64,000 nt of DNA, from assembly GCA_017649645.1 (NCBI GenBank), contig JAGCGK010000042.1, forward strand, positions 31,043 to 95,042, given 5' to 3'. The notes beneath the pieces are model-generated. The model did not search any database. It was not told where the DNA came from and saw only the letters and a list, made by a program, of their open reading frames with translations. This stretch comes from Clostridiales bacterium (GTDB lineage Bacteria > Bacillota > Clostridia > Saccharofermentanales > Saccharofermentanaceae). The position numbers and the translations under genes were made by a program. This document shows positions 6,463 through 10,411 of this stretch, in pieces. How positions within the stretch are numbered: position 1 is the first letter of the stretch; each line of letters starts with the position of its first letter.

Positions 6463-6509
6463 ATTGACATATAGTAAACGCGTTGATAAGGAATATTACC
6501 TCTATCTTA

Positions 6510-6743
6510 GTCGCACAGAGAGTTGACGGTCGGTGTAAGTCAACGGACAGAGATCTTGGGAACTCACCTTTGAGCGGTCGAACAGAAAGCATCAGTGATT
6601 AAGTTCGAACGGAGAAGTCCACCGTTATCGGGACAGAATATCAGGAATCAATCCTTGTATTCGGTGAGTGCATCCAATGACGGATGAATTAGAGTGGTAC
6701 CGCGAACGCCCCTTCGTCTCTATGTAGATGAAGGGGCTTTTTG
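6510..6743 (+). promoter_or_regulatory. T-box riboswitch leader of leuA (leucine specifier CTC)
   Basis: About 230 bases upstream of leuA with T-box features in order: a stem I region containing GGTGTAAG, a specifier region GGGAACTCACC in which CTC (6563-6565) would be the leucine specifier codon, and the conserved T-box AGAGTGGTACCGCGAA at about 6691-6706. The intrinsic terminator follows at 6708-6743. Uncharged tRNA-Leu(GAG) should pair with CTC and the T-box and permit read-through. The specifier matches the leucine biosynthetic gene downstream, as in other Firmicute leu leaders. Confidence 0.9.
6708..6743 (+). terminator. T-box-controlled intrinsic terminator
   Basis: Hairpin GCCCCTTC.../...GAAGGGGC followed by TTTTTGTTT. 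Its 5' arm lies directly after the T-box motif, so the antiterminator and terminator are mutually exclusive. The leuA Shine-Dalgarno (GGAGG, 6747-6751) comes right after. Confidence 0.88.
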
Positions 6744-6759
6744 TTTGGAGGTATCAACA

Positions 6760-8424
6760 ATGATGAATTACGGTAAGTACAAAAGACCGCCGATGGTCCC
6801 GATAAAGGACCGCAAGTGGCCGTCAAATCAGATGACCAAGGCTCCGATCTGGTGCTCTGTTGATCTTCGTGACGGTAACCAGGCACTCGAGATCCCGATG
6901 AATCTCGAGCAGAAGGTCTATTTCTTTTCTTATCTCGTAAGGATCGGATTTAAGCAGATCGAGATCGGTTTCCCGGCAGCATCGGAGACTGATTACAATT
7001 TCACTCGTTATCTTATCGAAAACAATCTCATACCTGACGACGTAGCTATCCAAGTGCTTACACAATCCAGGGAACACATAATCGCGAAAACAATGGAAGC
7101 CGTCAAAGGTGCTCCGAATGTTATCGTGCATCTTTATAATTCGACGAGTACTCTCCAAAGAGAAGTGGTCTTCGGATTTGACAGGAAAGACTGCGTTAAT
7201 CTTGCTGTTGAGGGTGCTAAGCTCATCAAGGAATATATCGCGAAAGATACTTCCGATACTAACTACATCCTTGAGTATTCTCCTGAAAGTTTCTCGGGAA
7301 CTGAAGTCGATTTCTCAGTCGAGATATGCGACAGCGTACTTGATATATGGCAGCCGACACCTGATAACAAGGCTATCATCAATCTTCCTGAGACAGTTCA
7401 GCTTTCTACTCCGAACGTGTATGCTGATCAGATCGAATACTTCTGTACAAATACCAGATGGAGAGATTCTATACATGTTTCTTTGCACACACATAACGAC
7501 AGAGGTACAGGTATCGCATCATCCGAGCTCGGTATCCTTGCAGGAGCTGACAGGGTAGAAGGTACTTTGTTCGGTAACGGTGAGAGAACAGGAAATGCCG
7601 ATATCGTTACTCTTGCTATCAACATGATGATGAACGGTATAGATCCTATGCTCGATTTCTCTGATATAGATGAAGCGATCCATATCTATGAGACATCCAC
7701 GAGCATGCTTATCGATGACAGACATCCGTGGGCCGGTAAACTTGTATACTCAGCTTTTTCAGGTTCTCACCAGGATGCCATCAAGAAGGGTATGGAGCAT
7801 CTTAAGAAGTCCGGTTCAAAGATCTGGGAAGTTCCGTATCTTCCTATCGATCCGATGGATGTCGGACGTAACTATGAGCCTATCATCAGGATCAACAGTC
7901 AGTCCGGTAAGGGCGGAGTTGCTTATGTTATGGAGCAGTATTTCGGCTTAAGACTTCCGAAGAGCTTCTTGATCGATTTCCTGCCTATCATCAAGGATGA
8001 GACTGACAGGAACATGAAGGAACTTACTCCTCAGCAGATATTCGACATTTTCGATGATACATATATAAATGTTGTGACACCATTCAGACTTGTTTCATTT
8101 TCTGAAATAGCTCATGATGATAAGCATTCAGAAGTTGCTGCCAAGATCATGTATCGCGGTGAACTTAAGAGGATCAAAGGTAAGGGAACAGGTCTTTTGG
8201 ATGCTTTTGTCAACGGCTTTACATCAGCTTTTGATATCAGCTTTACGATCAGCATGTATAACGAGCATGCTATGAAGAGTGGTACAGATTCTGCAGCTAT
8301 CACATATATCGAGATCAAGAAGGATAAGGAGCGCAATGTCTACCTTGGCGCAGGCGTCTCAAGTTCCGTAACGAAATCATCCGTTAGAGCGATCATAAGT
8401 GCAGTCAACAGAATGATCAAATGA
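6760..8424 (+). CDS. leuA: 2-isopropylmalate synthase
   Basis: A 554-residue enzyme condensing acetyl-CoA with 2-oxoisovalerate, the first committed step of leucine synthesis. The HMGL-like TIM barrel shows WCSVDLRDGNQAL near residue 30 (metal and acyl site) and the SLHTHNDRG metal-binding HxH. The C-terminal third is the regulatory LeuA dimer domain. Length and the N-terminal KYKRPP...PIKDRKWP block place it in the longer type 2 LeuA group also found in yeast and actinobacteria. The start is ATG at 6760 with GGAGG eight bases upstream; in-frame triplets further up lie inside the T-box and terminator and cannot be the start. It stands as a single gene between terminators. Confidence 0.93.
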   Translation: MMNYGKYKRPPMVPIKDRKWPSNQMTKAPIWCSVDLRDGNQALEIPMNLEQKVYFFSYLVRIGFKQIEIGFPAASETDYNFTRYLIENNLIPDDVAIQVLTQSREHIIAKTMEAVKGAPNVIVHLYNSTSTLQREVVFGFDRKDCVNLAVEGAKLIKEYIAKDTSDTNYILEYSPESFSGTEVDFSVEICDSVLDIWQPTPDNKAIINLPETVQLSTPNVYADQIEYFCTNTRWRDSIHVSLHTHNDRGTGIASSELGILAGADRVEGTLFGNGERTGNADIVTLAINMMMNGIDPMLDFSDIDEAIHIYETSTSMLIDDRHPWAGKLVYSAFSGSHQDAIKKGMEHLKKSGSKIWEVPYLPIDPMDVGRNYEPIIRINSQSGKGGVAYVMEQYFGLRLPKSFLIDFLPIIKDETDRNMKELTPQQIFDIFDDTYINVVTPFRLVSFSEIAHDDKHSEVAAKIMYRGELKRIKGKGTGLLDAFVNGFTSAFDISFTISMYNEHAMKSGTDSAAITYIEIKKDKERNVYLGAGVSSSVTKSSVRAIISAVNRMIK

Positions 8425-8433
8425 AATAATATA

Positions 8434-8483
8434 GGGGATGTCACAAAAGTAATTGAACTCACTTGGGACATCCCCATTCTTTT
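8434..8483 (+). terminator. Terminator of leuA
   Basis: Perfect 9-bp stem GGGGATGTC (8434-8442) / GACATCCCC (8467-8475) with a 24-base loop, then ATTCTTTTT. The same stem sequence is reused in the terminator at 48200-48240. Confidence 0.85.
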
Positions 8484-8484
8484 T

Positions 8485-8646
8485 GAATTCCCGTTATTTG
8501 TACAGTTCTATAGCGGTACAGATGACTGTATTTTAGGAAGAATTCCCGTTGCTTGTACAGTCCTATAACGGTACGAATGACTGTAATTTTGCCGTTTTTC
8601 CCGTGATAAGTACAGTTTCTTAGAACTGTACAGATGACTGTAATTT
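8485..8646. repeat. Three tandem ~50-bp repeats rich in TACAG/CTGTA half-sites
   Basis: Three direct copies start near 8485, 8540 and 8595, with a period of about 55 bases. Each reads CCCGT...GTACAG...GGTAC or TGTAC...ATGACTGTA. Nine TACAG or CTGTA half-sites occur (8501, 8517, 8526, 8556, 8581, 8611, 8626, 8629, 8638), several as dyads such as TACAG-ATGA-CTGTA. Copies 1 and 2 can also pair CCGTTA or CCGTTG with TAGCGG or TAACGG, and copy 3 has an 8-bp palindrome GTACAGTT/AACTGTAC. No open frame is supported. It may be an operator array or structured RNA. Confidence 0.7.
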
Positions 8647-8686
8647 ATTGAAGACAAAAGGAAAGGTCTCATTAAAATGCCTTTGA

Positions 8687-8836
8687 AATCCAGTAATCTA
8701 TCCCTATTCACAGAGACTAAATACCGGATTTTCTTGTAAAATACAGCAAAAAGTTCCTGGTTATAGGGATTACTAACTGGATTCTAGCCAAAAATCCAGT
8801 ATTTTCTCCCTATCGTCAGGGAGAAACAACTGGTGT
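8687..8836. repeat. Four copies of a bipartite motif CCAGT-N6-TCCCT arranged as two inverted pairs
   Basis: Copies A (8687-8707, plus) and C (8793-8813, plus) and copy B (8763-8783, minus) share AATCCAGT-N6-TCCCTAT exactly, with unrelated 6-base spacers. Copy D (8818-8833, minus) keeps the core CCAGT-N6-TCCCT. A faces B across about 55 bases. C faces D directly and forms a strong hairpin with 14 of 16 bases paired and a 6-base loop. Fixed arms and fixed spacing with a free spacer suggest recognition by a protein dimer, a recombinase or an RNA-binding factor. Nothing coding is visible. Confidence 0.75.
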
Positions 8837-8841
8837 TTCAT

Positions 8842-8895
8842 GGCAGGGTTTCGCAGAACAAAAAGCAGATCCACTTCAGTGTGAACCTGCCTTTT
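8842..8895 (+). terminator. Terminator-like hairpin, plus strand, far from any gene end
   Basis: GGCAGGGTTTC near 8842-8852 can pair with GAACCTGCC (8883-8891), followed by TTTT. It lies more than 350 bases beyond the leuA terminator, and the minus-strand reading has no T tract. It may therefore end a separate plus-strand transcript through the repeat region. Confidence 0.45.
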
Positions 8896-8932
8896 ATGAT
8901 CCGAATTATGTTTTGAGACATCCTAAATTTAT

Positions 8933-10411
8933 TTACAGCATTTTCGATTTATTTCTGAAGTTTCTGTCTTTTCGTTTGATGTTTCTTCTTCTGAAGATAA
9001 AGATCGCTGCGATAAGGATTACCGCGAGGACTGATACTCCCAAGACTGTGATGATGAGCTTTTTGAGCTTGCCCCAGAATTTACTGGAGGACTTTTCCGG
9101 AGTGATCTCAGACAGACGTTCTTTGGATTCTATAAGAAGATGAATGGTTCCGACTTCATATGTATAATTGTCACTGTACCTTCTGTAAAGAGGTATATCA
9201 AATGACTGCGATGTTATATTCGGATTTATTACTACTCCTGAAAGCTCGATTACAGCCGTATAGCCTCCGAGAGCTCTGGACGTCAGGGTAGTGTGGTACG
9301 GATTAAGATTGATCGTATAATCAACGATCTTAAGGTCTGTATCAACAAGAAGCTGATTGATCTGAACTTCGGTATTATCCTTAAGGGTCGTATAATCTGC
9401 TTCATCAATTGCAACAGTAGTAAATTTGTTATATCCGTACTCGAAAAGTTGGATGATATCGGAATACCTGATCTCTGAATCTTCTGCTCCGAAGATAGCA
9501 GCAACAAGGATTCGACCATTTTTATTAGCAGCTGCTACGATCGTGTTTCCGGCTGCTTCGGTAAATCCTGTCTTACCTCCGATGTAATACTCGTATGCGT
9601 ACATCTGCGTCGAGATGAATCGGTTTGCATTGAGGACAGTTCTCTTATCATTGTATTTATTGGTCTCAGGAATCTCGTATTGCGTTGATGTAGCGATCTC
9701 ACTGAATTCAGGATAAGCAAGACAAGCCTCCAGGATCTTACACATATCGCTTACAGTAGTAAGATTAGGTCTTTCCGGATCTGAAAGACCGTAACTGGAT
9801 GTGAAATTTGTATTAGTGCAACCAAGTTCCTTTGCTCTGTCATTCATCAGAGTGCAGAAATCAGCTTCAGATCCTCCGATATGGATCGCGAGAGCCAAGG
9901 TAGCATCATTACAGGATTTGAGGATCGCAGCATTAACGAGGGCTTCAACAGTGAATTCTTCACCCTCTGTCATTCCAAGCCTTACATAATCATCAGGAAT
10001 TCCTGCAAACATCATTGGTGTAATGGTTACCGTATCGCTCATATCACAGTTCTCAAATGCCAGAAGAACGGTCATAAGCTTAGTAGTTGAAGCAGGCTCC
10101 AAAGCAGTATTAATATCCTGACCATAAAGATATATCTGGGATTGAGCATCGAAAAGTACGAATGACTTACCGTTTATCTCAGGTGCTTCAGGATTTGTCT
10201 CATTAAGGAAAGCTGTCTTAGCATCGTCAGTTGATACTACGATCTGATCATCAGCCGCTGATGCTGTAGTTTCCAGGGAAAAAGTTGTCTCTTCTGAGGT
10301 CGATTCTCCATCTCCTTCGGGATCAGGATCAGCATATACATTATCAAAAATACCAAATACCAGTATCAGTGCCATGAGCACAGATAAGATCTTGGTGAAT
10401 GAGTTTTTCAT
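8933..10411 (-). CDS. D-alanyl-D-alanine carboxypeptidase (serine-type, PBP5/DacF-like)
   Basis: A 492-residue exported penicillin-binding protein that trims the terminal D-Ala from peptidoglycan pentapeptides. There is an N-terminal signal peptide (about residues 5-27) and then an acidic Ser/Thr linker. The peptidase S11 domain has S108-T-T-K111, S166-C-N168 and K280-T-G282. The C-terminal PBP5-type domain is followed by a membrane anchor around 450-475 and a basic tail, so the enzyme is held on the outer face of the membrane. The start is ATG with CGGAGG upstream. A promoter TTGTGA-16-TATAAT lies just upstream on the minus strand. Confidence 0.92.
   Translation of the reverse strand: MKNSFTKILSVLMALILVFGIFDNVYADPDPEGDGESTSEETTFSLETTASAADDQIVVSTDDAKTAFLNETNPEAPEINGKSFVLFDAQSQIYLYGQDINTALEPASTTKLMTVLLAFENCDMSDTVTITPMMFAGIPDDYVRLGMTEGEEFTVEALVNAAILKSCNDATLALAIHIGGSEADFCTLMNDRAKELGCTNTNFTSSYGLSDPERPNLTTVSDMCKILEACLAYPEFSEIATSTQYEIPETNKYNDKRTVLNANRFISTQMYAYEYYIGGKTGFTEAAGNTIVAAANKNGRILVAAIFGAEDSEIRYSDIIQLFEYGYNKFTTVAIDEADYTTLKDNTEVQINQLLVDTDLKIVDYTINLNPYHTTLTSRALGGYTAVIELSGVVINPNITSQSFDIPLYRRYSDNYTYEVGTIHLLIESKERLSEITPEKSSSKFWGKLKKLIITVLGVSVLAVILIAAIFIFRRRNIKRKDRNFRNKSKML

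What the first reader, a model, noticed from the sequence alone, without database searches (positions are those of the whole stretch)
8687..8836. Four copies of a strict bipartite element, CCAGT-N6-TCCCT, between leuA and the carboxypeptidase gene
Three copies share AATCCAGT-N6-TCCCTAT without mismatch (8687-8707 plus, 8763-8783 minus, 8793-8813 plus), and a fourth keeps the core at 8818-8833 (minus). The arms are conserved and the spacing fixed while the spacers differ, which is the mark of recognition by a dimeric protein, a site-specific recombinase or an RNA-binding factor rather than simple duplication. The copies alternate in orientation: A faces B, and C faces D in a hairpin with 14 of 16 pairs. 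The element matches no repeat family I know.
Basis: seen in the sequence. Interest (0 to 1): 0.75.

Follow-up and report, generated by a model that had tools for sequence, protein, structure and literature searches.

The report
Mobile element that replaces gene terminators
The repeated motif is real, but it is half of a 53-base mirror-image repeat unit carried inside a small hitch-hiking mobile element that sits where the gene's transcription terminator stands in a sister species; it is a well-resolved variant of known kinds of mobile DNA, with an open question of what, if anything, recognises the repeats.

Summary
In detail: four exact CCAGT-N6-TCCCT copies lie at the stated places, and the motif occurs 90 times in its own genome against 2 for the reversed control. 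Each copy is one half-site of a 53-bp tandem palindromic unit, AAT-CCAGT-N6-TCCCT-N6-AGGGA-N6-ACTGG-ATT plus a 9-bp spacer. The window has three units (8687-8836); two partner halves are degenerate.

In the window the units lie inside a 490-bp element (8434-8923). In the sister species G083 the same leuA/carboxypeptidase gap holds a plain intrinsic terminator; the element stands in that stem-loop's place, with the T-tract kept. Of ten loci queried, eight had a usable orthologous flank in G083: all eight lack the element and seven show a terminator. The element's left 42 bp match the end of an IS1182-family copy of the same genus, a family for which inverted-repeat-replacing transposition is published (IS1272). 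So it is best read as an IS1182-type MITE carrying a minisatellite and its own terminator.

Unit arms are kept as sequence rather than as covarying pairs, which mildly favours DNA recognition; no recogniser is known. The repeat was found in two sister species only.

The parts
8434..8923 (+). MITE-like element (490 bp), absent from the orthologous site in the sister species
   Evidence: Ends located; orthologous flanks in G083 (L173) at 91% and 92% identity on the two sides with a plain terminator between; no end motif or unit anywhere in L173.
8434..8475 (+). Left end: hairpin GGGGATGTC...GACATCCCC followed by a T-rich tail (8476-8484); matches the left end of an IS1182-family copy
   Evidence: -20.0 kcal/mol here, -19.3 to -29.5 at the 17 left ends found in fetched stretches; 42-bp match, 88% identity, to L230.
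8488..8652 (+). Three copies of a second, 55-bp palindromic repeat family (TTCCCGT...GTACAGT...ATGACTGTA)
   Evidence: TTCCCGT starts at 8488, 8543, 8598; a family judged the same by eye stands alone at G000 C33.
8687..8730 (+).
8740..8783 (+).
8793..8836 (+).
8860..8894 (.). Terminator-like hairpin GCAGATCCACTTCAGTGTGAACCTGC with A/T runs on both sides
   Evidence: sequence; fold of the minus strand
8911..8923 (-). Right terminal inverted repeat TTTTGAGACATCC, complement of the family's left end GGATGTCTCAAAA

Best explanation
The four motif copies are half-sites of three 53-bp palindromic units inside a non-autonomous IS1182-family element (MITE). Shown: the element is present here and absent from the sister's orthologous site; it stands where a locus-specific terminator stem-loop stands in the sister, with the host T-tract kept and no target duplication seen at the three loci with both junctions; its left end is homologous to the left end of an IS1182-family copy of the genus; 17 left ends were found in the genome and each folds into a stable hairpin with a T-rich tail. 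Inferred: an IS1182-type transposase moved it in trans by inverted-repeat replacement, as described for IS1272, and it is tolerated because it gives a terminator back. Inferred: the 53-bp units are an older intergenic minisatellite of this two-species lineage that the MITE captured before the two species split. Weak inference: because arms are held as sequence and not as covarying pairs, each half-site may be bound as duplex DNA by an unknown protein (boxes 11 bp apart, one helical turn).
For: Empty sites: 12 flanks from 10 loci queried in G083. Eight loci gave orthologous flanks reaching the site; 8 of 8 lack the element, with no end motif (2 or fewer mismatches) or unit (5 or fewer mismatches in 20) in any of the 12 fetched G083 loci; 7 of 8 show a stem-loop with T-tract (-16.9 to -20.1 kcal/mol); three have both flanks. 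IS1182 link: 42 bp at 88%, E 1.5e-8 in a 13-locus comparison, to L230, which holds part of an IS1182 transposase. IR-replacing transposition without target duplication in IS1272: PMC5678879, abstract and sections 22 and 24 read. 15 of 17 left ends lie 9-45 nt after the stop of an open frame of at least 100 codons in the same direction. Two composites sit at orthologous places in both species (L012/L101, L016/L095). No covariation of arms.
Against: No IS1182-type transposase was found in G000 or G083 (PF13751; NF033551), so no present engine is known there; G000 is a draft (90.4% complete, 6.3% contamination). The NF033551 match in L230 itself is partial and below the curated cut-off (96.8 of 270 bits; 3 of 85 genomes exceed it). 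At one of eight sites (C192) no clear terminator is seen in the sister; a ninth locus (C72) had only a diverged alignment (83%) ending about 200 bp short of the element and was not judged; a tenth (C83) gave no hit. The right end resembles IS1182 ends over only 18-19 bp (E 0.18 and above). No outgroup was used; that the terminators are ancestral rests on the stems differing from site to site. For the binding reading: no protein; arms are not significantly less variable than N6 among element copies (p 0.10; the 0.002 is carried by the loop); G-U exceeds A-C 33 to 17 among arm cells, leaving room for an RNA role.
Confidence: 0.8

Rival explanations
1. The 53-bp units are RNA hairpins of untranslated regions, selected for stem pairing (mRNA stability or termination).
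For: The region folds far better than shuffles on both strands (z -8.1 and -9.5). One-sided changes give G-U more often than A-C in the forward orientation (33 to 17, mainly columns 17/28 and 20/25).
Against: One of 42 units changes both sides of an outer pair; pairs 4/41 and 7/38 are unpaired in 16 and 10 of 42 units; deviations of the two arms are independent; the six N6 pairs are paired in 12-21 of 42 units each, in the range of the slid controls for the whole structure (28-47%). Some standalone arrays lie between divergent genes (L037 and its ortholog L099). A palindrome folds well by construction.
Confidence: 0.2
2. Neutral minisatellite: units are copied by unequal recombination and by the MITE, and no function or recogniser exists.
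For: Unit number changes between species (3 against 4, 3 against 1). Among element copies, arms and N6 differ little in variability (6 of 52 against 7 of 24, p 0.10). The 42-unit set was picked by arm match, which favours conserved arms.
Against: Among old standalone units the inner box is near invariant while N6 is close to free, and no 53-bp step inside a standalone array was skipped at 5 or fewer arm mismatches of 20, so the contrast is not only a picking effect; even copying gives no reason for it.
Confidence: 0.3
3. REP-type palindromes moved by a RAYT (Y1) transposase.
For: Small dispersed extragenic palindromes of limited species range; no ORF of 100 aa or more spans any of 17 arrays examined (12 loci and 5 orthologs).
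Against: No Y1_Tnp (PF01797) match in G000 with 5 of 14 control genomes ringing. Not tested in G083.
Confidence: 0.05
4. Guide-type array: the two N6 blocks are short spacers between conserved edge and loop repeats, as in TIGR arrays.
For: Layout edge - variable - loop - variable in tandem; where an array is retained in both species its N6 blocks are identical.
Against: Six bases rather than the 9 (up to 12; 8-12 in stem-loop arrays) of TIGR (PMC12045711, passages); arrays scattered over many loci with ordinary neighbours (0 Nop hits among 20 flanking proteins at E 1e-5); the block GCAAAT recurs in several units. Nop was not searched genome-wide.
Confidence: 0.03

Closest known systems
IS1272 / IS1182 family insertion sequences (PMC5678879, abstract and sections 22 and 24 read)
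   Same: Inverted-repeat ends; target is an inverted repeat which is replaced; no target duplication; left end homologous to a genus IS1182-family copy
   Different: 490 bp, no transposase gene; carries two minisatellites; brings a terminator-like hairpin in its left end
BrickBuilt MITE of Porphyromonas gingivalis (PMC4596501, abstract read)
   Same: Minisatellite enclosed in a MITE with short inverted ends, intergenic, 19 copies in one strain
   Different: 23-bp unit; the abstract does not mention palindromic units or terminator replacement
BOX elements of pneumococcus (PMC3049150, abstract read)
   Same: Dispersed structured repeats nearly limited to close species; the modular build with a repeated middle unit is recalled from memory
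   Different: No sequence comparison was run; here the repeat unit also exists without the outer modules
REP / BIME (PMC3733652, abstract read)
   Same: Short extragenic palindromes, some families species-specific
   Different: No Y1 transposase found in G000; head-to-tail 53-bp period; GTAG/CGTC tags were not tested

Membership tests
MITE of the IS1182 family | Terminal inverted repeats | tested here: met
   GGATGTCTCAAAA (8436-8448, one mismatch in this copy) and TTTTGAGACATCC (8911-8923).
MITE of the IS1182 family | Ends homologous to an autonomous relative | tested here: inconclusive
   Left end 42 bp, 88%, to L230 (G003), itself a reduced copy with a partial transposase match below cut-off; right end only 18-19 bp, not significant. 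Left end met, right end not.
MITE of the IS1182 family | Present against absent at orthologous sites | tested here: met
   8 of 8 loci with a usable orthologous flank, out of 10 queried.
MITE of the IS1182 family | Inverted-repeat replacement without target duplication | tested here: met
   Three loci with both junctions read by eye: stem-loop gone, T-tract kept, no duplication. Five further loci one-sided; C192 without clear stem.
MITE of the IS1182 family | Transposase present in the host to move it | tested here: not met
   PF13751 and NF033551: 0 in G000 and G083; 11 of 85 genus genomes match NF033551 at E 0.001, 3 over the cut-off. Not defining for a non-autonomous element, but limits claims of current mobility.
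REP (RAYT-moved) | Y1 transposase in the genome | tested here: not met
   (G000 only)
Structured RNA family | Compensatory covariation in stems | tested here: not met
Structured RNA family | Match to a curated RNA family | tested here: not met
   Rfam gathering: only a T-box and a tRNA in the window; one weak below-threshold row in 8400-8960 (16.8 of 47 bits).
TIGR array | Adjacent tas (Nop-domain) gene | tested here: inconclusive
   0 Nop hits in 20 proteins next to arrays; no genome-wide search was left.

The most novel reading that the evidence does not exclude
The 53-bp units are arrays of duplex-DNA docking sites for an unknown, fast-evolving host protein: 5-bp boxes 11 bp apart within a unit and a 53-bp period (close to five helical turns) would put the boxes near one face of the helix. 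Sister species keep or swap whole arrays, at one locus for the 55-bp family, and at least one other species of the genus has an unrelated palindromic array of similar layout, so arms and protein may co-evolve as satellites and their binders do in eukaryotes.
Probability: 0.15. Interest if true: 0.75.

Novelty: new variant of a known kind. Interest (0 to 1): 0.45.

Why it matters
It gives a set of with-and-without sites for inverted-repeat-replacing insertion at terminators, here for a non-autonomous element that carries its own terminator-like hairpin and so may be nearly silent on landing. It also isolates an orphan repeat with many natural copies and orthologous presence/absence pairs, so that the question of what binds it can be tested.

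Tried and rejected
Chance or purely local duplication: rejected (90 copies). Known RNA family: none. RAYT/REP: no Y1 transposase in G000. Phage origin: 0 exact full-hairpin matches in viral contigs. IS with the same ends inside G000: the one pair of end motifs noticed at IS-like spacing (C17) holds ordinary ORFs and a terminator and no transposase by eye. Wide distribution: pattern with up to 2 mismatches in 2 of 115 family genomes; covariance model in 2 of 85 genus genomes, with stricter filters and only 74 candidates scored per genome; exact pattern in genome contigs only in the sister's record, a search that may leave out the window's own genome. Palindromic arrays elsewhere in the genus: a tandem-repeat scan with a palindrome score flagged one non-coding array in G006 (L186) and one in G057 (L194), four more that lie in open frames (L195 and L199 in G057; L210 and L213 in G083), and none in 274 kb from 20 further species; it flagged no non-coding array in 400 kb of G083 either, so it says little. 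L184, L189 and L199 were judged by eye only. The terminator scan of 8380-8960 found none, probably because it wants uninterrupted stems; hairpins were folded instead. Arm constraint among element copies: first counted as arms against N6 plus loop (p 0.002); split on checking, arms against N6 alone is p 0.10 (0.18 for G000 only), so that argument is withdrawn; odds of the binding reading were lowered and of the neutral one raised for this. Paper searches run; none listed this element, and absence from print is claimed no further than those.

Rows dropped: alignment A1 used 42 units: 35 of 44 non-redundant standalone units (9 with an extra base left out to keep it ungapped) plus 7 composite units; units were picked by arm match. 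The 1-in-551 comparison used 4 of 6 orthologous array pairs; the other two differ throughout. The 17 left ends come from stretches fetched for motif or end-motif hits, so 17 is a lower bound.

Full report
OBSERVATION. The chance expectation in the window is 0.10 and the genome holds 90 exact copies against 2 for the reversed pattern. Reading the hits in context shows what was missed: each copy is one half of a palindromic unit AAT-CCAGT-N6-TCCCT-N6-AGGGA-N6-ACTGG-ATT, repeated head to tail every 53 bp, now and then 54, with a 9-bp spacer. The window has three units, 8687-8730, 8740-8783 and 8793-8836. Two of the six half-sites are degenerate, which is why four were seen.

TWO SETTINGS. In this genome the units occur (i) alone, as arrays of 1 to 5 units between genes, at L017, L022, L028, L029, L030, L031, L033 and L037; no ORF of 100 aa or more spans any of the 17 standalone arrays examined in both species (12 loci and 5 orthologs), which stand between convergent, tandem or divergent genes; and (ii) inside a larger, near-identical element, which by eye runs: left hairpin, one to four 55-bp repeats, two to four 53-bp units, right hairpin, right inverted end. 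Many copies of the second kind end contigs, as repeats do in drafts. Seventeen left ends were found in the fetched stretches. In the window the element is 8434-8923, between leuA (PF00682, PF08502) and a D-Ala-D-Ala carboxypeptidase (PF00768) on the other strand.

THE INSERTION. Of 115 family genomes searched, only G000 and one sister, G083 (contigs of record CAMYXL01, uncultured Clostridia bacterium), have the full hairpin with up to 2 mismatches. Twelve flanks from ten composite loci were searched in G083. Eight loci gave a usable orthologous flank; C72 had only a diverged alignment ending about 200 bp short and C83 had none. At the window locus the sister aligns on both sides (91% and 92%) and has, instead of 490 bp, a short stem-loop followed by TATTTATTT. 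At C77/C52 and C117/C201 the two contig ends in G000 prove to be the two sides of one insertion, again with a plain terminator in the sister. C104, C24, C30 and C75 agree on the side that was read; C192 lacks the element but shows no clear stem. None of the twelve fetched G083 loci holds an end motif or a unit. The stems differ from locus to locus, so they look ancestral; no outgroup was used. In each resolved case the stem-loop is gone and the host T-tract remains. Two other composites are at orthologous places in both species (L012/L101 and L016/L095), so insertion began before they split.

WHAT THE ELEMENT IS. Neither genome has an IS1182-type transposase match, but 11 of 85 genus genomes match NF033551 at E 0.001, three of them over the curated cut-off. 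One locus below the cut-off, L230 (G003), is an internally reduced copy whose left 42 bases match the element's left end (88% for the window copy, E 1.5e-8; closer by eye for L026), and several others end in GGGGCTGTCTCAAAAC or GGGGTTGTCTCAAAAGTGA. The right end resembles these over 18-19 bp only, without significance. For IS1272 of that family, replacement of an inverted-repeat target without duplication has been described (PMC5678879, abstract and sections 22 and 24). I therefore read the element as a non-autonomous IS1182-family MITE. All 17 left ends fold to between -19.3 and -29.5 kcal/mol with a T-rich tail, and 15 of 17 follow the stop codon of an open frame of at least 100 codons by 9-45 nt in the same direction. 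The inference is that it removes a terminator and supplies another.

THE REPEAT. Across 42 units the inner and outer boxes are strongly kept while N6 is nearly free. The units were picked by arm match, which favours this; yet no 53-bp step inside a standalone array was skipped at 5 or fewer arm mismatches of 20, while at 4 or fewer the middle unit of several composites was. Pairing is not what is kept: changes on the two outer arms are independent, the covariation score is below the shuffle mean (0.109 against 0.131), and N6 pairs at the level of slid controls. Against this, among 19 and 22 element copies the arms are not significantly less variable than N6 (6 of 52 against 7 of 24 sites, p 0.10; G000 alone 6 of 52 against 6 of 24, p 0.18); the difference first seen (p 0.002) is carried by the loop (8 of 12). 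So sequence-held half-sites are supported by old units only. Boxes are 11 bp apart and the unit is 53 bp, close to five helical turns; I keep duplex recognition as a possibility, not more.

RESULTS THAT FIT LESS WELL. Arrays present with the same units in both species are almost unchanged, N6 included (1 substitution in 551 bp against 57 in 1578 bp of the 200-bp flanks, p 8e-7), while two other orthologous arrays differ throughout (L022/L096, L037/L099). The retained ones were by nature those that align, and their nearest flanks are also quiet, so local recombination between the species cannot be excluded. At one place G083 has two degenerate 53-bp units where G000 has three 55-bp-family units (L164 against C33). 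At another, G083 has three units where G000 has unrelated sequence (L091 against C164). I have no mechanism for the origin of standalone arrays.

NOVELTY AND SCORE. Each part has a known counterpart: IR-replacing IS1182 elements, minisatellite-bearing MITEs, BOX and REP repeats. The combination, a MITE found in terminator positions with its own terminator-like hairpin and a captured palindromic satellite, is a new variant. I score it 0.45; a demonstrated binder would raise that.

Noticed in passing
window 6474-6724: T-box leader (RF00230, 119 bits) upstream of leuA.
   Followed up: no
window 8488-8652; L180 (G000 C33): Second palindromic repeat family, 55-bp period in the window, also standing alone between two terminators at C33, where the sister has 53-bp-family units instead.
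   Followed up: partly
L010 left flank; L202 2294-2520 (G083): Third repeat: spaced copies of CCAACCTTAGGTTGG-like palindromes with T runs, about 41-bp period in L202.
   Followed up: no
L184 1036-1295, L186 16635-16814, L189 9368-9548 (G006); L194 18842-18982 and L199 12875-12992 (G057): Sequence-unrelated tandem palindromic arrays in two other species of the genus; L186 and L189 look by eye like one family with outer arm, spacer, inner arm, loop. Only L186 and L194 passed the palindrome score as non-coding.
   Followed up: partly
L017, L033, L091, L098, L162 and others: Many intrinsic terminators of these genomes carry GTCTC or GAGAC in the stem, resembling the IS1182-type ends; some may be old element ends.
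   Followed up: no
L029/L092, L028/L097, L033/L102: Orthologous arrays are far less diverged than the flanks within 200 bp, N6 blocks included.
   Followed up: partly
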